Assembly: GCA_010672825.2 (NCBI GenBank)
Contig: JAAHFU020000009.1
Span: 1 to 38,608 of the forward strand
Source: Leptolyngbya sp. SIO1E4
GTDB lineage: Bacteria > Cyanobacteriota > Cyanobacteriia > Phormidesmidales > Phormidesmidaceae
DNA length: 38,608 nucleotides
Direction: 5' to 3'
Shown: one piece after another, positions 23,126 through 37,784 of the stretch
How the letters are laid out: each line of letters opens with the position of its first letter
Position numbering within the stretch: the first letter of the stretch is position 1
Made by a program: the position numbers and the translations under genes
Notes under the pieces: generated by a model
Databases searched by the model: none
Told to the model about the DNA's origin: nothing
The model's input: the letters and a program-made list of their open reading frames with translations, nothing else

Positions 23126-24859
23126 TCATTTTTCTGATAGCTCCTCCATCAATCGGATTTGCATTCGATAGACCAGCAATGTCACCTCATCCGGCAAGAG
23201 CTGGGAGAATCGTCTGCCTTCAAACTGCTCGGCAATGAATTGGGCCAGCTGCGGGTGTCCCCACCTTAAGCGGAAGAGGCACCGGCGCAGGGACTCTTGA
23301 TTGCAATAGCACTCCCACTCCTCTGAAGATGCTTTAGATGACGGAGGCGGCAGTGGCCGGTAGTGCTGGTCATTACTCAACTCATCAGGGTTAGCGGGCT
23401 GTGGAAAACGCTTTTCCTCCCCCCGTAGCCCCCTCTTCGGAGGATTCTTCTGAATCTGAGGAAAAACAGCCATACACTTCATAGATCTCTCTTGGGTGTG
23501 TAACAGTCCCTCTGACAAGGGTTGGGGCGGATCAGGTACTAAGGCCAGTGGTGCTGATACAGGCGGTTTTAGGACTTCAAAAAGGACTCGATCACCCTTT
23601 GGCTGGGCTGTTACACCCGTCTCTTCAGAAGGTTGAGTGTGGTCGGGGTGCCACAGGCTCAAATGCTTGTAGAGGGTCTTGAGGCTACAGTGGGCGGTTT
23701 CGGTGAGCTGTTGCACCAAGTCGCGAATTTTGTGGGGCAGGGTGCCGAGCTGCTTCAGGGTGTCAACGGCTTGGGCAATGCGATCGCGGGCATTCTCAGC
23801 GCGTTGCTGGTTCACACTGGGTTGGGGCGGCAGCTCAATGCTGGTATCTCGCGTCGGTTCGTCACCTAGGGGCCAGTAGTAGCCTTCGACGGCTTTGCAC
23901 CAGGCTTTGGCCTTGCGCTCAATTTCGTGCTGGTGGCGGCAATATTGTCGGTAGCCAGGGAGCTGCGGGACCGTCTCCAGAGTATGGGTGAACAGCTCAT
24001 CGCCGGACAGCCCCAGGAAGACGCGACCATAGCAGGCCACCGTCTTCAGCAGATGGTTGGTCTGGCCGTGACCGCTCCAGCCTGCTTCGAGTTCGGTTTC
24101 TAAATCCTGCCGCCAGGTTTCAACGGTGCTGTTGCTGGGGTAGGGAGAGCGCCTGGGCTTCTTGCGGCGATTGTCGCGTCCGATTTTGAGGGCGTGGCGC
24201 AGCTCATCCATGTCCTGGTGGCTGGCGGCTCCATCCCAGAGCCAGAAGAAGCGGTCGAGCTTGTCGCTGATCGGGTTCAGATCGTCGTCCAGCAGGTAGG
24301 AGCCGGTGCCCGGTTGCAGGGGCAGCCGGTGGCCGTTGTAGTGGATGATCTTCTCGACGCCATAGGGTTTGGGATTCGGGAAGATCTCCAGGGTGCCGTT
24401 GGCAATTTGAAAGTCCTGGGTGGTCAAGCATTCTTCGAGGGCAACGGCCAGGTCGAAGGTTTTGACGGCTTCCGGTAGCGGCAGGTAGAGGTGCAGGCCG
24501 TTGCTGTGGGTAGAGCGCAGCAACAGGGTGCGGGTGATGCCGATCGTTTCCAGGGCAGCGCGGAGCTGGGCGATCGCCTCGACGTTACAGTAGGGACTCT
24601 CAGCATCAATATCGATCAGCGCATAGGTGGTCAAACCATCGAAGCGGACGCCTATTAGGGTGTCCGGGTCTTGCCAGCGCTGCCACAGGATGCGCGGGCG
24701 CAGGGGATAGTCGGTAACAGTGCGCCACTTCGGTTTCTTGCCGGGGGCCGGGGCCGGGGCCTCGATGAAGTCCCACAAATTGCGGCCAAAGAGTTCGTGG
24801 AAGCGTTGACCAAGGGGGTCAGCGGGAAGGGGCTTCGGGGGGTGGAAGTGGGCTACCAT
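23126..24859 (-). CDS. Plasmid replication protein with archaeo-eukaryotic primase-type domain
   Basis: A protein of 577 residues; the ATG follows an AAGGAGGGG site. Residues about 55-195 carry the primase-polymerase motifs: DID at 83-85 in YALIDIDAESPY, SNGLHLYLPL at 119-128, and YNGHRLPLQPGTGSYLLD at 174-191. The middle is helical and basic (RDNRRKKPRRSPY). A helix-turn-helix-like segment is at about 370-405 (LPHKIRDLVQQLTETAHCSL), and the C-terminal part is helical. Proteins of this type are found on many cyanobacterial plasmids as the replication initiator or primase. It has a 300-base leader with signs of RNA control. HIP1 octamers lie near 23779 and 24570. Confidence 0.8.
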   Translation of the reverse strand: MVAHFHPPKPLPADPLGQRFHELFGRNLWDFIEAPAPAPGKKPKWRTVTDYPLRPRILWQRWQDPDTLIGVRFDGLTTYALIDIDAESPYCNVEAIAQLRAALETIGITRTLLLRSTHSNGLHLYLPLPEAVKTFDLAVALEECLTTQDFQIANGTLEIFPNPKPYGVEKIIHYNGHRLPLQPGTGSYLLDDDLNPISDKLDRFFWLWDGAASHQDMDELRHALKIGRDNRRKKPRRSPYPSNSTVETWRQDLETELEAGWSGHGQTNHLLKTVACYGRVFLGLSGDELFTHTLETVPQLPGYRQYCRHQHEIERKAKAWCKAVEGYYWPLGDEPTRDTSIELPPQPSVNQQRAENARDRIAQAVDTLKQLGTLPHKIRDLVQQLTETAHCSLKTLYKHLSLWHPDHTQPSEETGVTAQPKGDRVLFEVLKPPVSAPLALVPDPPQPLSEGLLHTQERSMKCMAVFPQIQKNPPKRGLRGEEKRFPQPANPDELSNDQHYRPLPPPSSKASSEEWECYCNQESLRRCLFRLRWGHPQLAQFIAEQFEGRRFSQLLPDEVTLLVYRMQIRLMEELSEK

Positions 24860-25078
24860 GCCACCCCTCCTTGACTCTGCTCAATTCTGTGTAAAAGCTG
24901 ACACGTCGCGTACTGGTGTATATGTACCAGGCTAAAAGCAAAGAAATTCATTGTTTTTGCGTTCTCTGAGGGGGCAACTAGCAAACCATGCCAACCCTGA
25001 AACGTAGGCGGCATCAGCCTTTCCAGAGGTGGGGCAGGCTTTCGCTAGAGATTAATCAAAATTGAACGTACCAACCTC

Positions 25079-25106
25079 TTGCACTGATCGATGTCAGTGC
25101 TATGAT
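25079..25106 (+). promoter_or_regulatory. Promoter with overlapping palindrome, opposite to the replication gene
   Basis: The -10 box is TATGAT (25101-25106) and the weak -35 is TTGCAC (25079-25084), with a 16-base spacer. The spacer is covered by GCACTGA (25081-25087) and TCAGTGC (25094-25100), a perfect 7-bp inverted repeat that could bind a repressor. It points rightward, away from the leftward replication gene. Confidence 0.45.
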
Positions 25107-25112
25107 GAAAGC

Positions 25113-25175
25113 GCGAAATTAATATTTGCCTGATGCAGAGCGATGACGAGGTTTGGCGGCCGTGTCATCGTTTTT
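25113..25175 (+). ncRNA. Candidate countertranscribed RNA in the replication-gene leader
   Basis: A transcript from the promoter at 25079-25106 would end at an intrinsic terminator: stem CGATGAC (25141-25147) and GTCATCG (25164-25170) followed by five T (25171-25175). The RNA would be about 60 bases. Its 16-base loop contains TTTGGCGG; UUGGCG loops are known in antisense RNAs that control IncI/IncB-type plasmids. It is antisense to the leader of the leftward replication mRNA, 250-310 bases before that start. It is a structural prediction only. Confidence 0.45.
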
Positions 25176-25180
25176 GCGTT

Positions 25181-25210
25181 TCAGGGCTTTTTTGCGTTCA
25201 CATAAGTCAT
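25181..25210 (-). CDS. Possible leader peptide upstream of the replication gene
   Basis: On the replication-gene strand a near-perfect Shine-Dalgarno, AAGGAGGTG (complement of 25211-25219), precedes ATG at 25210, giving MTYVNAKKP and a TGA at 25181-25183. An overlapping ATG at 25203 is followed directly by TGA. A strong ribosome site with no longer frame suggests a leader peptide, next to the candidate antisense RNA. Confidence 0.35.
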   Translation of the reverse strand: MTYVNAKKP

Positions 25211-25271
25211 CACCTCCTTATAGGCGCTGATCGTACAAGCTTTTCAAGAATTGGCGATCGCTTCATTGCCA

Positions 25272-25886
25272 TCATTCCACCAACATCTCAGCAGCAGTAG
25301 CATCCCAAAGCGCTAGCAGCTCTGACCGAACGGGTTGCTCTCCTTTGAATTCACCTTTGAGGGTATAAGCTCTACCATTGAGCACCCACACCGAAACCGA
25401 CTCATATCCTGGCAGCGGATTCACAACCCAATACTCGGGAATCTTGGCATCGGCATATTCGCCCACGTTGTCCTGCGTGTCTTTCTTGAGGGTTTCAGGA
25501 CTCACGACCTCAATCGTCAGCAGCGGTGGGGTGTCTTTGAGAAATAGCGCTTTGGTGAGACCTGACATCGCTTGCCACTGAGCTTTGGTGCAGATCAGCA
25601 GGTCAGGATCGCGGCTGTTGTCTGGTCGCCCAAATTGGGGAATCTGTACGCCAGGACCAGACTTCACAACTAAATCTGGAGCATGAGATCGGATGTAGGC
25701 TTTAAGTCGATCTCTCAAGTTCTCTACGATATCGATGTGTTGGGGACTTAGCTCAGTCGCATCGATAATTTCCCCATCCACGAATTCAGTCCGTCGCCCG
25801 TCGTAAGGAGTGAGCAGGTATTGCTCAAAGGTGAGCTTTTTCTGATTCGCTGCTTGCACTGAAGTCATCGCGGCCATGTCGCTCAT
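25272..25886 (-). CDS. Uma2-family protein (PD-(D/E)xK fold), possibly lacking the catalytic lysine
   Basis: A protein of 204 residues of the Uma2/DUF820 family, very common in cyanobacteria. The nuclease-fold core has RDPDLLI, then LTIEVVSPET, then VGEYADAKIPEYWVVNP. At the position before EYA where a lysine is usual, the sequence reads DNVGEYA, so the catalytic Lys may be lost. Its ATG overlaps the stop of the next upstream Uma2 gene (ATGA at 25886-25883). The family's biological role is not settled; it is annotated as an endonuclease by fold. Confidence 0.85.
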   Translation of the reverse strand: MSDMAAMTSVQAANQKKLTFEQYLLTPYDGRRTEFVDGEIIDATELSPQHIDIVENLRDRLKAYIRSHAPDLVVKSGPGVQIPQFGRPDNSRDPDLLICTKAQWQAMSGLTKALFLKDTPPLLTIEVVSPETLKKDTQDNVGEYADAKIPEYWVVNPLPGYESVSVWVLNGRAYTLKGEFKGEQPVRSELLALWDATAAEMLVE

Positions 25887-26461
25887 CCACCCAATTCTCC
25901 TTCGCGCAGCAATGACAGCAAATCGGCAACCGAGATGTTCAATCCCAGCAGCTCTAAAGTGCCGTCTTGCATCAGCCTTTCTCGATACTGACCTTCGTGG
26001 GGATGGTCATAGACTTTCAGCGTTTGGCGACTCACATCAAATACCCAATACTGAGGAATGCTCGCTTGGGCATAGAGATCTCGTTTGCGCTTAGTGGCCT
26101 CTGCTGTGCGGGTCTTGGCCACCTCAATGACTAAATGCACGTCTTCGGGGCATGGGTGGGCTTTGGCATAGCTTTTCCGCTTCACCACAGAGATGTCAGG
26201 CACGGGCGTACTGAACTCGCTGATAAAGATGGGTTTTTCCTCACGAATGCGGATGGGCTGACCTGCTAACTCTGGTTCCAAATAGTCGCGTAGTAGCTCG
26301 ATGAGCCATCCGTGCTCTGGTGATGAGATGCCCACTCTGTAAAGTATTCCGTCAATTAATTCCACTTCCGAGCCGACAAGTACCCCCGCTTCGATGGCTG
26401 CCATGCACTTGTCGAAGGTCCAGCGATAAATGTCTGGTGATTTAGTGATGGCTTGGGTCAT
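25883..26461 (-). CDS. Uma2-family protein (PD-(D/E)xK fold)
   Basis: A protein of 192 residues from the ATG at 26461 (MTQAITKSPDIYRWTFDK), chosen for GAGG 9 bases upstream. The core is VPDISVV, then LVIEVAKTRTAEATKRKRDLYA, then IPQYWVFDV, with the lysine present (KRKRDLYA) and EVA replacing the common EVS. It lies in an operon with the downstream Uma2 gene (ATGA overlap) and the upstream small protein (10-base gap). The two Uma2 proteins are not close copies of each other. Confidence 0.85.
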   Translation of the reverse strand: MTQAITKSPDIYRWTFDKCMAAIEAGVLVGSEVELIDGILYRVGISSPEHGWLIELLRDYLEPELAGQPIRIREEKPIFISEFSTPVPDISVVKRKSYAKAHPCPEDVHLVIEVAKTRTAEATKRKRDLYAQASIPQYWVFDVSRQTLKVYDHPHEGQYRERLMQDGTLELLGLNISVADLLSLLREGELGG

Positions 26462-26471
26462 AGAGATCGCC

Positions 26472-26657
26472 TCACTTATTGGCATCCTTATATGACTGTA
26501 ACCGTTCCTCAATAAGGACTCTTAGCTTCGCAGCAAGGCTTAATTGCTTCCATGCCGGATCATTCCGGCACGTTTCAATGTCTTGCTCTAAACCTTCAAT
26601 GTCTACCGACACCCTTTTAGGCACTGCTGCTTCACCACTATTTATGATCGCTTCCAT
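26472..26657 (-). CDS. Small protein, first gene of the Uma2 operon
   Basis: A protein of 61 residues (MEAIINSGEAAVPKRVSVDI, then WKQLSLAAKLRVLIEERLQS), with a short strand and two helices like a ribbon-helix-helix or antitoxin-type protein. A GGAGAGGA site lies 9 bases upstream. Small proteins of this kind often precede Uma2 genes. It may be the regulator of the operon; the fold is not certain. Confidence 0.6.
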   Translation of the reverse strand: MEAIINSGEAAVPKRVSVDIEGLEQDIETCRNDPAWKQLSLAAKLRVLIEERLQSYKDANK

Positions 26658-33459: not shown

Positions 33460-36400
33460 GTGCAGGTTGATCGCAATATTCGCATTGAAGGGAATGCAAC
33501 CGGCAACGCGATCATTTCAGGGGATGGCAACACGGTTTATGTCATCCAGCAGACAAAAGCGCAACGACAAGAATTCCAGATAGCAGCAGCCGTTACGGAA
33601 ATTGGGCCTAATCCCTACAAGGGGTTAACCGCCTTTCAGGAGAGCGATGCAGATCGCTACTTTGGCCGAGAAGAGCAGGTTGATGACCTGATTGAGCGCT
33701 TCCAGACACTCCATAGCCAGAATTTTCAATTTCGCTTCTTGTCCATCTTAGGACCGTCAGGCTGTGGTAAGTCATCTCTAGTCCGAGCCGGATTCATCCC
33801 TGAGCTAGCGCGACGACCGCTACCCAGCAAGGAAAGGATGCGGGTGGCGGTACTGGTACCAGGCACTCATCCGGTGGAAGCCCTAGCGGGGGTCCTGGCG
33901 AAAGTCGCCACCCAAGACCCGATGCCGGCCACCAAAACGCGAGAGTTTACCGCTGAACTCAAGCTACAAACGACCGATAGGCTTTATGACGGGATGCGGC
34001 GGATCACCGACCTGATGCCCCAGATCAAAGATTCTCCGCTGGTAGTTCTGGTAGACCAATTTGAGGAAGTCTACTCGCTTTGCAAAGACCTGAACGAACG
34101 CCAAGCATTTATTGAGAATCTGCTCTGTGCTGCCAGTGCCCCCACTGGCAACCTATCAGTGGTGATTACCCTACGTAGTGACTTCTTGGGAGAAGTCCAA
34201 CGCCATCAGACACTTAACCAAATTACTGCAAAACAGAGCGTGATTGTGCCCGCGATGACGCAGTATGAATTGCGCGATGCCATTGCCAAACCGGCTCAGC
34301 AAGCAGGGTACCCCCTGGACGAGAATACAATTGACCGGCTCATTAAGGATACGGAAGGTCGGGAAGGCGCACTACCGCTACTACAATTTGCCCTGCAACG
34401 CATCTGGGAAGGATTGCGGCAAGGACAGGAGCCGATGGTGGTCTACCAGGAAATGAAAGGTGTCGGGGGAGGACTAGCCAACCAAGCACAGACTCTCTAC
34501 GAAGCACTCTCAGCAGAAGAACAGAAGATGGCCCGTCGGGTATTTGTTGGCTTAGTACAGTTAGGGGAAGGCAACCGTGTTACTCGACGGCGAATAGCAG
34601 TCGAAACTTTGCTGATCAACCAAGATGAACTAGAAACTCTAAAGCGAGTGATTCAGCAGTTTTCATCACAAAAAGCACGGCTGATTTCGCTATCCGGGAC
34701 CCAGGAGGGACAGGAAGTTGCTGAGGTGACCCATGAAGCACTGTTTGAGCACTGGCAGCAATTTCACAACTGGCTTGATAGCAGCCGCGATGATATTCGT
34801 TTCCAGCGGCGCTTAGAGTCTGCTGTGCACTATTGGAATCAGCAAGGCCGACCGGAGGGCTTGCTATGGCGCCCCCCGGACTTGGATTTGCTGCGGGATT
34901 TTCAGCAGCGAGCTGCTCAAGATATGACGGCACTAGAAACAAGCTTTTGGCAAGTTTCTCATCAAGCAGAACAGCGTCGAAAGCGGAATAAAAGTTTGGT
35001 AACCGCTGGTCTGGCCACTGGCCTAGTATTGACCACAGTGTCCTCGGGAATTGCGTTTTGGAATGTAGAAGCTGCCAACCGGAGCCGAATCGAAGCACAG
35101 CGTAATAATGTTCAAACTTTGGCTCAAACAGCCGCTGCGCTGAATGCTTCTGGAAAAAGCTTTGAGGCAAATATTGCAGGCCTAAAAGCAGCCAAACAAT
35201 TTCAGCGCAATCAGATACCGGATGCCAAAATCAGTAATGAGATTCGAGGAGAATTAGTTACAGCACAACTCGTACGAAACCGTGAAATTACCCGCCTCGA
35301 AGGTCACAGCGATTCGGTTTGGGTCGTGCGCTTCAGTCCCGATGGCACCACCCTGGCCACTGGCAGTAGTGACGGCACTGCCAAGTTGTGGCAGGCCGAT
35401 GGCACCCTCATCACCACCCTCGAAGGCCACAGCAATGCGTTAGGGGACGTGCACTTCAGTCCCGATGGCACCGCCCTGGCCACTGCTAGTAGTGACGGCA
35501 CTGCCAAGTTGTGGCAGGCCGATGGCACCCTCATTGCCACCCTGGAAGGCCACAGCGATTGGGTTTGGGTCGTGCGCTTCAGCCCCGATAGCACCATCCT
35601 GGCCACTGGCAGTCGTGACGGTACCGCCAAACTCTGGCAGGCCGATGGCACCCTCATTACCACCCTGGACGGCCACAGTGGTTGGGTGGGGGACGTGCGC
35701 TTCAGTCCCGATAGCACCACTCTTGTCACAACCAGTTTCGACGGCACTGCCAAGCTGTGGCAGGCTGATGGCACCCTCATCACCACCCTAGAAGGCCACA
35801 GCGATGTGGTTGGGGATGTGCGCTTCAGCCCCGATGGCAAGATCCTCGCCACCGCCAGTAGTGATGGCACTGCCAAGCTGTGGCAGACCGATGGCACCCT
35901 CATTACCACCCTGGAAGGCCACAGCGATGCGGTTTGGGTCGTGCGCTTCAGCCCGGATGGCAAGGTCCTTGCTACCACCAGTAGCGACGGTACTGTCAAA
36001 CTCTGGCAGGCCGATGGCACCCTCATTGCCACCCTAGAAGGCCACAGTGATGTGGTTTGGGTCGTGCATTTCAGTCCCGATGGCAATACCCTGGCCACCG
36101 CTAGTGAAGACGGTACCACCAAACTCTGGCAAGTCGATGGCACCCTTATCACTACTCTGGAAGGCCACATTGATGCGGTTTTGGACGTGCACTTCAGCCC
36201 GGATGGCAAAACCCTGGCTACTGCCAGCCGCGACGGTACCGCCAAACTCTGGCAGGCTCAAAGTATGCTCATTACCATCCTCGAAGACCACAGTAACTGG
36301 GTTTGGGATGTGCACTTCAGCCCGGATGGCAGCACCCTGGCCACCGCCAGTCGTGATGGCACTGCCAAGCTGTGGCAGGCTGATGGCACCCTCATCACCA

Positions 36401-37341
36401 CCCTAGAAGGCCACAGCGATGCGGTTGGGAATGTGCGCTTCAGTCCCGATGGCAAGATCCTCGCCACCACCAGTGAAAACGGTACCGCCAAGCTGTGGCA
36501 GGCCGATGGCACCCTCATTACCACCCTGGAAGGCCACAGCGGTCCGGTTAGAGACGTGCACTTCAGTCCCGATGGCACCACCCTGGCCACTGCCAGTAGC
36601 GACGGCACGGCGAAGCTGTGGCAGGTCGATGGCACATCCATCACCACCCTTGAGGGTCACAGCGGTCCGGTTGGGGATGTGCGCTTCAGCCCCGATGGCA
36701 CCACCCTGGCCACTACCAGTGACGACGGGACGGCGAAGCTGTGGCAGGTCGATGGCACATCCATCACCACCCTGGAAGGCCACATTGATACGGTTTGGGA
36801 TGTGCGCTTCAGTCCCGATGGCACCACCCTGGCCACTGCCAGTAATGACGGCACGGCCAAGCTGTGGCAGGCCGATGGCACCCTGATCACCACCCTCCAG
36901 GGCCACAGCGATAGGGTTTTGGACGTGCACTTCAGCCCGGATGGCACCACCCTGGCCACCGCTAGTAGCGACGGCACGGCCAAGCTGTGGCAGACCGATG
37001 GCACCCTGATCACCACCTTCGCAGACCACAGTGACTGGGTTGGGAACGTGCGCTTCAGTCCCGATGGCAAGATCCTCGCCACCGCCAGTAGTGATGGCAC
37101 TGCCAAGCTGTGGCAGACCGATGGCACCCTCATTACCACCCTGGAAGGCCACAGCGATGCGGTTTGGGACGTGCGCTTCAGCCCTGATGGCAATACCCTG
37201 GCCACCGCCAGTGGCGACGGTACCACCAAACTCTGGCCCTGGAGTTTAGATGTGCTGATGGCCCACACCTGTGAGCAAGTCCGAGGTTATTTGCAGAGTA
37301 GCCCCAATGTTCCTTCAGAGGATAAAAATCTTTGTGATTGA
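33460..37341 (+). CDS. nSTAND NTPase with TM segment and 16 WD40 repeats
   Basis: A protein of 1293 residues from the GTG at 33460, preceded by GGAGGT. Residues 1-30 carry the beta-rich GNATGNAIISGDGNTV motif. The nSTAND NTPase begins NPYKGLTAFQESDADRYFGR (about 50-70), with Walker A GPSGCGKS (98-105) and Walker B VVLVDQFEEV (about 194-203). A hydrophobic segment (SLVTAGLATGLVLTTVSSGI) lies near 510-530. From residue 613 there are 16 WD40 repeats of 41 residues, nearly identical except at a few positions. nSTAND-WD40 proteins are signal-transducing ATPases in which ligand binding by the propeller opens the NTPase and activates a partner. The ligand is unknown. Confidence 0.9.
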   Translation: MQVDRNIRIEGNATGNAIISGDGNTVYVIQQTKAQRQEFQIAAAVTEIGPNPYKGLTAFQESDADRYFGREEQVDDLIERFQTLHSQNFQFRFLSILGPSGCGKSSLVRAGFIPELARRPLPSKERMRVAVLVPGTHPVEALAGVLAKVATQDPMPATKTREFTAELKLQTTDRLYDGMRRITDLMPQIKDSPLVVLVDQFEEVYSLCKDLNERQAFIENLLCAASAPTGNLSVVITLRSDFLGEVQRHQTLNQITAKQSVIVPAMTQYELRDAIAKPAQQAGYPLDENTIDRLIKDTEGREGALPLLQFALQRIWEGLRQGQEPMVVYQEMKGVGGGLANQAQTLYEALSAEEQKMARRVFVGLVQLGEGNRVTRRRIAVETLLINQDELETLKRVIQQFSSQKARLISLSGTQEGQEVAEVTHEALFEHWQQFHNWLDSSRDDIRFQRRLESAVHYWNQQGRPEGLLWRPPDLDLLRDFQQRAAQDMTALETSFWQVSHQAEQRRKRNKSLVTAGLATGLVLTTVSSGIAFWNVEAANRSRIEAQRNNVQTLAQTAAALNASGKSFEANIAGLKAAKQFQRNQIPDAKISNEIRGELVTAQLVRNREITRLEGHSDSVWVVRFSPDGTTLATGSSDGTAKLWQADGTLITTLEGHSNALGDVHFSPDGTALATASSDGTAKLWQADGTLIATLEGHSDWVWVVRFSPDSTILATGSRDGTAKLWQADGTLITTLDGHSGWVGDVRFSPDSTTLVTTSFDGTAKLWQADGTLITTLEGHSDVVGDVRFSPDGKILATASSDGTAKLWQTDGTLITTLEGHSDAVWVVRFSPDGKVLATTSSDGTVKLWQADGTLIATLEGHSDVVWVVHFSPDGNTLATASEDGTTKLWQVDGTLITTLEGHIDAVLDVHFSPDGKTLATASRDGTAKLWQAQSMLITILEDHSNWVWDVHFSPDGSTLATASRDGTAKLWQADGTLITTLEGHSDAVGNVRFSPDGKILATTSENGTAKLWQADGTLITTLEGHSGPVRDVHFSPDGTTLATASSDGTAKLWQVDGTSITTLEGHSGPVGDVRFSPDGTTLATTSDDGTAKLWQVDGTSITTLEGHIDTVWDVRFSPDGTTLATASNDGTAKLWQADGTLITTLQGHSDRVLDVHFSPDGTTLATASSDGTAKLWQTDGTLITTFADHSDWVGNVRFSPDGKILATASSDGTAKLWQTDGTLITTLEGHSDAVWDVRFSPDGNTLATASGDGTTKLWPWSLDVLMAHTCEQVRGYLQSSPNVPSEDKNLCD
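35296..37263 (+). repeat. Sixteen tandem 123-bp WD40-coding repeats
   Basis: Units begin at 35296 and every 123 bases, the 16th at 37141. The consensus is LEGHSDxVxxVxFSPDGxx, then LATASSDGTAKLWQADGT. Variable positions are mostly those right after GHS, and the residue after FSPDGxx. Near-identical DNA suggests recent expansion and possible continued gain or loss of units. Confidence 0.9.
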
Positions 37342-37532: not shown

Positions 37533-37643
37533 GGACCAGCGGGGGCATTTGAACAAAGAATTACGGTTTCGCTTGAAAGCCTTTCTGTATGCGAGTTTTA
37601 GAACTTCCTTTTTCCCTGATGAGTTGCCGCATCACGCAACTAA
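37533..37643 (+). repeat. Dispersed repeat, copy 3
   Basis: GGACCAGCGGGGGCAT (37533-37548), TTACGGTTTCGC (37561-37572) and ACGCAACTAA (37634-37643) match copy 1 at 11698-11807 in order and spacing. It forms an inverted pair with copy 4. Confidence 0.65.
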
Positions 37644-37647
37644 ACCT

Positions 37648-37784
37648 GTGTTTCAAGAGAGTTTCAGGTTACCCTCTGAACGAGAAATGAAGGGTTTCAG
37701 AGTATAATTGCCAAACGATGTAGTCCAATCGCAGGCCAGAAATTCAAAACCGTAACTTTCTGGGCGTATGCCCCCGCTAGTCCC
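37648..37784 (-). repeat. Dispersed repeat, copy 4 (inverted)
   Basis: On the minus strand it reads GGGACTAGCGGGGGCAT (complement of 37768-37784), then AGAAAGTTACGGTTTTGAAT, and ends at CTCTCTTGAAACA. It is nearly colinear with copy 2 at 15528-15663. Confidence 0.7.

What the first reader, a model, noticed from the sequence alone, without database searches (positions are those of the whole stretch)
24860..25219. Possible antisense-RNA and leader-peptide control of the primase-type replication gene
A promoter with TATGAT and an operator-like palindrome points against the replication gene. It would yield an RNA of about 60 bases with an intrinsic terminator, whose loop contains TTTGGCGG. On the opposite strand, upstream of it in the replication leader, a near-perfect Shine-Dalgarno precedes a nine-residue peptide frame. 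UUGGCG loops plus leader peptides are the logic of IncFII/IncI copy control, which I do not know to be described for cyanobacterial primase-type plasmids.
Basis: partly seen in the sequence, partly recalled or inferred. Interest (0 to 1): 0.75.

Follow-up and report, generated by a model that had tools for sequence, protein, structure and literature searches.

The report
Antisense RNA control of plasmid replication
A cyanobacterial plasmid appears to encode, ahead of its replication gene, a short antisense RNA whose pairing loop is rewritten between sister plasmids of the same genome, as expected if the RNA counts plasmid copies and lets related plasmids coexist.

Summary
The antisense observation holds; its details need correction. 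Opposite the rep leader lie a promoter-like TTGCAC-N16-TATGAT and a terminator-like hairpin with loop TTTGGCGG, predicting an RNA of about 63 nt. A second contig of the genome (C11) carries the leader at 90% identity. Both stem arms are identical, but 13 of 17 loop columns differ, against 23 of 360 elsewhere, and the loop core is flipped to CGCCAA. That is the signature of an antisense incompatibility loop. The layout (perfect Shine-Dalgarno, start-stop, hairpin) was found at 13 loci in 7 genomes; where a gene could be seen, it belongs to three kinds of replication protein.

The nine-residue peptide is not conserved. The better-placed start codon is followed directly by a stop (AUG-UGA or AUG-UAA). 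Another reading frame overlaps the rep start and could couple translation. An IncI-type pseudoknot found no support. The Rep has a predicted AEP primase-polymerase domain.

Best reading: an antisense copy-control and incompatibility determinant that works like the IncFII/IncI systems without being a member. How pairing would lower Rep is unresolved; I favour occlusion or destabilisation of the ribosome-loaded 5' end. There are no RNA data.

The parts
23126..24859 (-). rep gene: 577-aa replication protein with a predicted N-terminal AEP prim-pol domain
   Evidence: D83, D85, S116, H123 invariant in 23 aligned homologs; AlphaFold2 model, mean pLDDT 75.8; best Foldseek and VIA match CAPP prim-pol, Z 17.9 over residues 14-232; no Pfam or NCBIfam family at E 0.001
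25230..25235 (-). probable -10 (TACGAT) of the rep leader promoter, just upstream of the Shine-Dalgarno
   Evidence: inference by reading; blastn homology to C11 ends at 25235, and C11 reads TAAGAT at the same place; no consensus -35, not called by the scan
25212..25219 (-). perfect Shine-Dalgarno AAGGAGGT near the predicted 5' end of the rep mRNA
   Evidence: part of the search pattern by which the 13 module loci were found
25198..25203 (-). start-stop codon pair ATG-TGA, 8 nt after the Shine-Dalgarno
   Evidence: 16 hits of AAGGAGGTN{6,9}ATGTRA in 63 genomes against 5 for the reversed pattern; 12 of the 16 followed by an antisense terminator, against 3 of 24 examined hits outside the family
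   Evidence: 1 nt from AAGGAGGT; nine codons only in C9 and C11 (reading)
25079..25106 (+). antisense promoter TTGCAC-N16-TATGAT
   Evidence: similar site in 12 of 13 modules; not called by the consensus scan
25081..25100 (.). palindrome GCACTGA-N6-TCAGTGC in the promoter spacer; hairpin in the rep leader or operator
   Evidence: compensatory change in C11; uninterrupted 7-bp arms in C9, C11 and G018b, 3-5 bp in nine others, G057 not scored
25113..25175 (+). predicted antisense RNA, about 63 nt
   Evidence: inferred from promoter and terminator; neither end measured
25141..25170 (+). terminator hairpin of the antisense RNA; its complement is the target hairpin in the rep leader
   Evidence: fold of the 80-nt stretch z -4.56; both stem arms identical in C11
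25148..25163 (+). specificity loop with TTTGGCGG; replaced in C11
   Evidence: 13 of 17 loop columns differ against 23 of 360 outside, hypergeometric P about 1e-11
24853..25014 (-). 53-codon leader ORF whose stop (TAG) overlaps the rep start (ATGGTAG); candidate coupled leader peptide
   Evidence: overlapping ORF of 12 or more codons in 10 of 13 close leaders, against a mean of 2.0 and a maximum of 7 in 300 shuffles; but 27 of 143 leaders overall; no strong Shine-Dalgarno by reading

Best explanation
The leader of the rep mRNA is an antisense-RNA copy-control and incompatibility module. (1, inferred) The rep mRNA starts a few bases upstream of a perfect Shine-Dalgarno. (2, seen in sequence and recurring in relatives) That site is followed by an AUG-stop pair and then, 14-37 nt on, by a hairpin. 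(3, inferred from sequence and conservation) A convergent promoter about 140 nt downstream of the Shine-Dalgarno makes a short RNA complementary to this hairpin, ending at the same hairpin read as a terminator. (4, supported by comparison) The apical loop is the recognition element: antisense and target loops kiss, with a run of 8 pairs for the cognate 8-nt core and of 2 for the C11 core, so that C9 and C11 can coexist. (5, inferred) Antisense concentration follows copy number; pairing spreads into the A-tract next to the start-stop, blocks or strips the ribosome loaded at the 5' end and exposes the mRNA to RNases, lowering Rep synthesis. The leader ORF overlapping the rep start may pass the effect on by translational coupling. 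Confidence is for steps 2-4 together; step 5 alone I put at about 0.4.
For: C9/C11: loop replaced, stem kept (13 of 17 loop columns against 23 of 360). Longest core pairing 8 for cognate pairs, 2 for C9/C11, 5 for C9/C6. Same layout at 13 loci in 7 genomes, with terminator-strand folding z below -2.6 in 12 of 13. The loop holds UUGGC or its reverse complement in 7 of the 8 modules that I grouped as C9-type, flipped in 3; the other 5 of the 13 lack it (reading). In a sister set of 25 leaders the 180 nt before rep are highly conserved except at two spots, one in the terminator loop and one just downstream of the antisense promoter; 8 of the 10 most variable of 167 columns lie there. All 13 within-genome pairs differ in these loops. 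The module precedes prim-pol, CyRepA1-type and DnaD/O-like replication proteins.
Against: No transcript data. The generic scan finds neither promoter nor terminator. Between-genome loops are never identical either (0 of 240), so the sister set shows hypervariability rather than a special within-cell rule. Two G013 leaders (C28, C29) share the first loop and differ in a second hairpin (reading). C9 and C6 loops share a 5-nt run, and the wider C9/C11 loops a 6-nt run. One module (G045) has a fold z of only -1.2. Folding predicts at most a 0.07 change in openness at the rep start on antisense binding (7 leaders), and pairing of the 5' Shine-Dalgarno region is at chance level, so step 5 lacks computational support. 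The start-stop is absent from three leaders that have a strong Shine-Dalgarno (L022, L010, L234).
Confidence: 0.75

Rival explanations
1. IncFII/IncI-type translational control in the strict sense: the antisense RNA blocks translation of a leader peptide to which rep is coupled, or blocks a loop-leader pseudoknot that activates rep.
For: UUGGCG loop; leader ORF ending over the rep start in 10 of 13 close leaders.
Against: No pseudoknot partner beyond chance for 6 of 6 loops tested with Watson-Crick pairs; with G-U pairs two loops (G018a, G013a) reach runs matched by 33 and 41 of 300 shuffles. No strong Shine-Dalgarno before the overlapping ORF (reading). Only 5 codons differ between C9 and C11 in it, 3 of them non-synonymous. 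In G036 and G057 some 750-900 nt separate module and gene.
Confidence: 0.3
2. Transcription attenuation as in pT181/pIP501: antisense binding lets a terminator form in the rep leader.
For: L021 (G013) has a sense-strand terminator about 117 nt before rep. The sister set has a weak hairpin plus T-run before rep (-7.4 kcal/mol).
Against: No sense-strand terminator found in the C9 leader.
Confidence: 0.15
3. Primer control like ColE1 or as proposed for pSYSA: the leader transcript primes replication and the antisense RNA prevents its maturation; rep expression is secondary.
For: Published model for pSYSA, where extra leader transcript raises copy number even with a stop at codon 2. The module lies upstream of different Rep kinds.
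Against: No origin mapped; nothing here tests priming.
Confidence: 0.15
4. The hairpin is only a terminator or recombination relic; no functional antisense RNA.
For: No RNA data; consensus scan negative.
Against: Loop replacement with stem retention, recurrence with start-stop at 13 loci, similar convergent promoter in 12 of 13.
Confidence: 0.08

Closest known systems
IncFII R1 CopA-tap-repA (passages of PMC5717011)
   Same: short cis-antisense RNA against the rep leader; a leader reading frame next to rep, to which rep is coupled in R1
   Different: prim-pol Rep; start-stop at a 5' Shine-Dalgarno; a CopB-like repressor gene was not looked for here; role of the leader ORF unproven
I-complex plasmids IncI/IncB/IncK RNAI-SLI (passages and reference list of PMC10724649)
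   Same: short single-hairpin RNA (60-61 nt for IncK); UUGGCG loop motif (title of its ref. 19); loop changes decide compatibility
   Different: no pseudoknot partner found; motif lies in the antisense strand in C9 and in the target in C11; Rep of another family (that RepZ is no prim-pol is recalled)
pSYSA asRNA1/ssr7036/CyRepA1 of Synechocystis 6803 (PMC9978351, abstract, passages and part 1 of 2 of section 23)
   Same: cyanobacterial plasmid; abundant antisense RNA upstream of a rep gene; leader transcript raises copy number even with a stop at codon 2
   Different: 153-nt RNA predicted with three stem-loops over a 64-aa gene; RNase E control; CyRepA1-type Rep; ColE1-like priming model
CyRepX1/CyRepX2 of pSYSX (PMC10899382, abstract and passages)
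   Same: antisense RNAs at the rep start proposed to regulate Rep
   Different: antisense starts about 25 nt inside the gene and covers the rep Shine-Dalgarno; overlaps of 249 or 285 nt

Membership tests
IncFII/I-complex antisense copy control | sequence for a short antisense RNA with terminator hairpin, complementary to the rep leader | tested here: met
   anatomy and conservation; the RNA itself was not observed and the generic scan was negative
IncFII/I-complex antisense copy control | UUGGCG-type recognition loop | tested here: met
   UUUGGCGG in C9; UUGGC or its complement in 7 of 8 C9-type loops, in 7 of all 13 modules (reading)
IncFII/I-complex antisense copy control | loop sets incompatibility | tested here: inconclusive
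   comparative signature only
IncFII/I-complex antisense copy control | leader peptide translationally coupled to rep | tested here: inconclusive
   overlapping ORF enriched; nine-residue frame not conserved; coupling untested
I-complex (IncI/IncB/IncK) | pseudoknot between target loop and a site before rep | tested here: not met
   C9: Watson-Crick run of 5, reached by 166 of 300 shuffles; six loops together 166-300 of 300
pSYSA asRNA1/ssr7036 system | antisense RNA covering a 64-aa leader gene; CyRepA1-family Rep | tested here: not met
   one predicted hairpin; Rep without NCBIfam match, fold AEP prim-pol
pT181/pIP501 attenuation | sense-strand terminator between target and rep | tested here: not met
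   none found in the C9 leader
ColE1-type priming | leader RNA primes replication | not testable with these tools
   no origin or primer data
Rfam antisense families | match to a curated model | tested here: not met
   0 gathering-level hits in the window; 5 sub-threshold hits at the site, none to a plasmid RNA family
AEP prim-pol replication proteins | AEP fold with conserved DxD and histidine motifs | tested here: met
   the motif names are recalled

The most novel reading that the evidence does not exclude
A portable antisense copy-control cassette shared by different cyanobacterial replication genes, in which a perfect Shine-Dalgarno followed by a zero-codon frame (AUG-stop) at the mRNA 5' end acts as a ribosome parking site that the antisense RNA evicts, and whose recognition loop diversifies partly by strand flipping, so that antisense RNAs of sister plasmids can also pair with each other.
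Probability: 0.35. Interest if true: 0.8.

Novelty: new variant of a known kind. Interest (0 to 1): 0.66.

Why it matters
Cyanobacteria keep many plasmids together, and how these stay compatible is little known (abstract of PMC10899382). Here a candidate answer can be read from sequence and tested by swapping about 16 bases. The recurrence of the module ahead of three replication-protein kinds and the AUG-stop element suggest a mobile regulatory cassette, useful for building compatible cyanobacterial vectors. A copy-control element built on a zero-codon frame would be new to me; the search listed none in bacteria.

Tried and rejected
Pseudoknot of the loop with the leader: no better than shuffles with Watson-Crick pairs in 6 loops of the 13 modules. 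Sequestration of the 5' Shine-Dalgarno: z between -1.3 and 2.2 in 13 modules. Change of rep-start openness on antisense binding: at most 0.07 in 7 leaders. General hexaloop code UUNNCG: a strict search hit 6 of 144 leaders, and 8 when the leaders were reverse-complemented, so dropped. Family-wide antisense terminators: 63 of 82 dereplicated leaders, but 50 of 82 also on the sense strand, so weak on its own (7 duplicate loci and leaders under 400 nt dropped beforehand, 135 left before dereplication). Stem sequence GATGAC/GTCATCG outside this genome: 13 single places in 13 other genomes of 388, none examined. Start-stop pattern outside the bacterial family: 28 places against about 51 for the reversed pattern by my count, so no signal there; 24 of the 28 were held as loci and tested. 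Within-genome against between-genome loop identity: 0 of 13 against 0 of 240, not discriminating; terminator loop alone 4 of 13 against 61 of 240 (L046 and L048 dropped as duplicates, leaving 23 leaders). Plasmids of named strains read for the Shine-Dalgarno/start-stop layout without seeing it, in 480-500 nt before rep: pSYSG, pAQ4 and T. variabilis plasmid D and two Synechococcus elongatus plasmids (the rep starts used for L149 and L236 were set by position and are guesses). Of the 15 ordinary Shine-Dalgarno sites one (L224) also scored as a terminator (-16.6).

Full report
Setting. The window is contig C9 of an 8.2 Mb, 12-contig genome. It carries a relaxase-like gene (below the NCBIfam cut-offs) and a 577-aa Rep gene, 24859-23126 on the minus strand. 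The Rep has relatives in 79 of 143 related genomes, in 46 loci of named assemblies and in 66 plasmid records. Invariant D83, D85 and H123 in 23 homologs (their reading as AEP motifs is recalled) and the predicted fold of residues 12-232 (mean pLDDT of the model 75.8; CAPP prim-pol, VIA Z 17.9, rmsd 3.3, 195 aligned) point to an AEP primase-polymerase domain. Pfam finds no family at E 0.001.

Anatomy. Read rightwards, TTGCAC (25079-25084) and TATGAT (25101-25106) are 16 nt apart. A hairpin CGATGAC/GTCATCG (25141-25170), with TTTGGCGG in its loop, is followed by T5. The predicted RNA is 25113-25175. Read leftwards, the rep leader begins with a probable -10 (25235-25230), AAGGAGGT (25219-25212), ATG-TGA (25203-25198), then the same hairpin, and reaches the rep start about 340 nt after the start-stop. 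The generic scan calls neither promoter nor terminator, so the case rests on comparison.

The decisive comparison. Contig C11 of the same genome carries the leader and the first 98 Rep codons. The blastn match between C9 and C11 ends at 25235, at the probable -10. Over 377 aligned columns 36 differ, 13 of them in the 17 loop columns (hypergeometric P about 1e-11), while both stem arms are identical. The loop core is flipped: UUUGGCGG in the C9 antisense, CCCGCCAA in that of C11. The palindrome in the promoter spacer changes in compensation. The longest core pairing is 8 for each cognate pair, 2 for C9 with C11 and 5 for C9 with the third leader of this genome, C6. Over the whole loops C9/C11 reaches 6 and C9/C6 5.

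The module elsewhere. AAGGAGGTN{6,9}ATGTRA has 16 places in 63 genomes of the bacterial family; the reversed control pattern has 5 by my count of the table. By reading, 13 places have the hairpin: C9, C11, C6; G018 C507 and C711; G013 C27, C28, C29 and C31; G036 C56; G057 C76; G045 C237; G017 C470 (G013 C31 as L132). The automatic terminator test passes 12 of the 16 (G036 fails it) against 3 of 24 tested hits outside the family. In six genomes all 24 places of AAGGAGGTGAN{3,8}ATG were considered: the 9 module places all have a stop as second codon (known), and none of the other 15 does. A convergent TTGC..TA-type promoter is found in 12 of 13 modules; the loose pattern would be met by chance in roughly a third of such stretches (my estimate). 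Three leaders with a strong Shine-Dalgarno lack the start-stop: L022, L010 and the BL0902 plasmid L234.

Different genes behind it. Downstream of the module lie the prim-pol Rep (C9, C11, C6, G017, G018 C507, G013 C27 and C31); a CyRepA1/DUF3854 protein in G036 (NCBIfam score 191 against a cut-off of 200); in G057 a protein cut by the contig end and related to plasmid proteins, some named CyRepA1 (no Pfam, NCBIfam or PHROG match of its own); and a DnaD/O-like replication protein in G045 (PHROG E 1.7e-10). The C9 Rep finds no match in these three contig stretches by tblastn at E 0.001. G018 C711, G013 C28 and C29 end before a gene can be judged. The distance from start-stop to gene is about 340 nt in C9 and about 430, 750 and 890 nt in G045, G057 and G036, taking the longest ORF.

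A sister set. In 25 leaders of one group, chosen by eye, the 180 nt before rep are nearly constant except at two places: two bases of the terminator loop and a stretch of about 8 nt downstream of the antisense promoter. Eight of the ten most variable of 167 columns fall there. All 13 within-genome pairs differ, but so do all 240 between-genome pairs.

Leader peptide. The nine-residue frame starts 1 nt after AAGGAGGT and keeps its length only in C9 and C11. A frame of 53 codons, 25014-24853, stops over the rep start (ATGGTAG). Such an overlap of 12 or more codons exists in 10 of 13 close leaders, against a mean of 2.0 and a maximum of 7 in 300 shuffles; over all leaders it is 27 of 143. Some of the 13 are near relatives, so the count overstates independence. 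C9 and C11 differ at 5 codons in it, 3 non-synonymous, so coding is not proven.

Mechanism. Seen by sequence and comparison: hairpin, variable loop, 5' Shine-Dalgarno with start-stop, promoter-like site. Inferred: transcription, kissing, repression. In silico, antisense binding hardly alters the rep start and no pseudoknot partner stands out. Because the module serves different genes at different distances, I favour an effect on the 5' end of the mRNA: ribosome loading and stability. A strong Shine-Dalgarno in a 5' leader stabilises mRNA in Bacilli, even without a start codon (passage of PMC3997798). In pSYSA the leader transcript still raised copy number with a stop at codon 2 (PMC9978351).

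Known systems. It works like IncFII/IncI control but I do not file it as a member: the Rep is of another family and the pseudoknot test failed. pSYSA and pSYSX are the nearest cyanobacterial precedents. Searches for antisense control of this Rep kind or of start-stop elements in bacteria returned no report of either (judged by titles, starts of abstracts and the passages read); subscription papers are mostly not covered.

Noticed in passing
window 33460-37341: Large protein with TolB-like and TmcD-like matches below cut-off and a DNA repeat array at 35287-37237 with spacings of about 123 nt, suggesting repeat expansion.
   Followed up: no
window 37635-37783 and 15676-15528: A 149-bp inverted repeat, 84% identical.
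   Followed up: no
window 25272-25886 (and adjoining ORF 25883-26512), minus strand: A Uma2-family gene ends about 50 nt upstream of the rep leader; a second ORF overlaps its start. The match to C11 ends at 25235, so C11 has a different upstream context.
   Followed up: partly
window 25148-25163 and L003 14319-14352: The antisense loops of C9 and C11 are complementary to each other (UUGGCGG with CCGCCAA, by reading), so the two antisense RNAs could pair and titrate one another.
   Followed up: no
L012 and 24 related leaders, -120 to -1: CCCGAGAG, CTCTCTCGGG and the rep Shine-Dalgarno AGGAGAGAG could form alternative pairings, a possible antisense-operated switch (reading).
   Followed up: no
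L150, L237, L234 (Leptolyngbya sp. BL0902 plasmids): A named strain carries two sister leaders differing at a loop position and a third leader with a similar hairpin, without start-stop, ahead of a large protein of unknown family.
   Followed up: partly
G000 C10:1-1017 and C11:14635-14928: Rep fragments at contig ends (codons 238-576 and 1-98), possibly one further plasmid broken in assembly.
   Followed up: no
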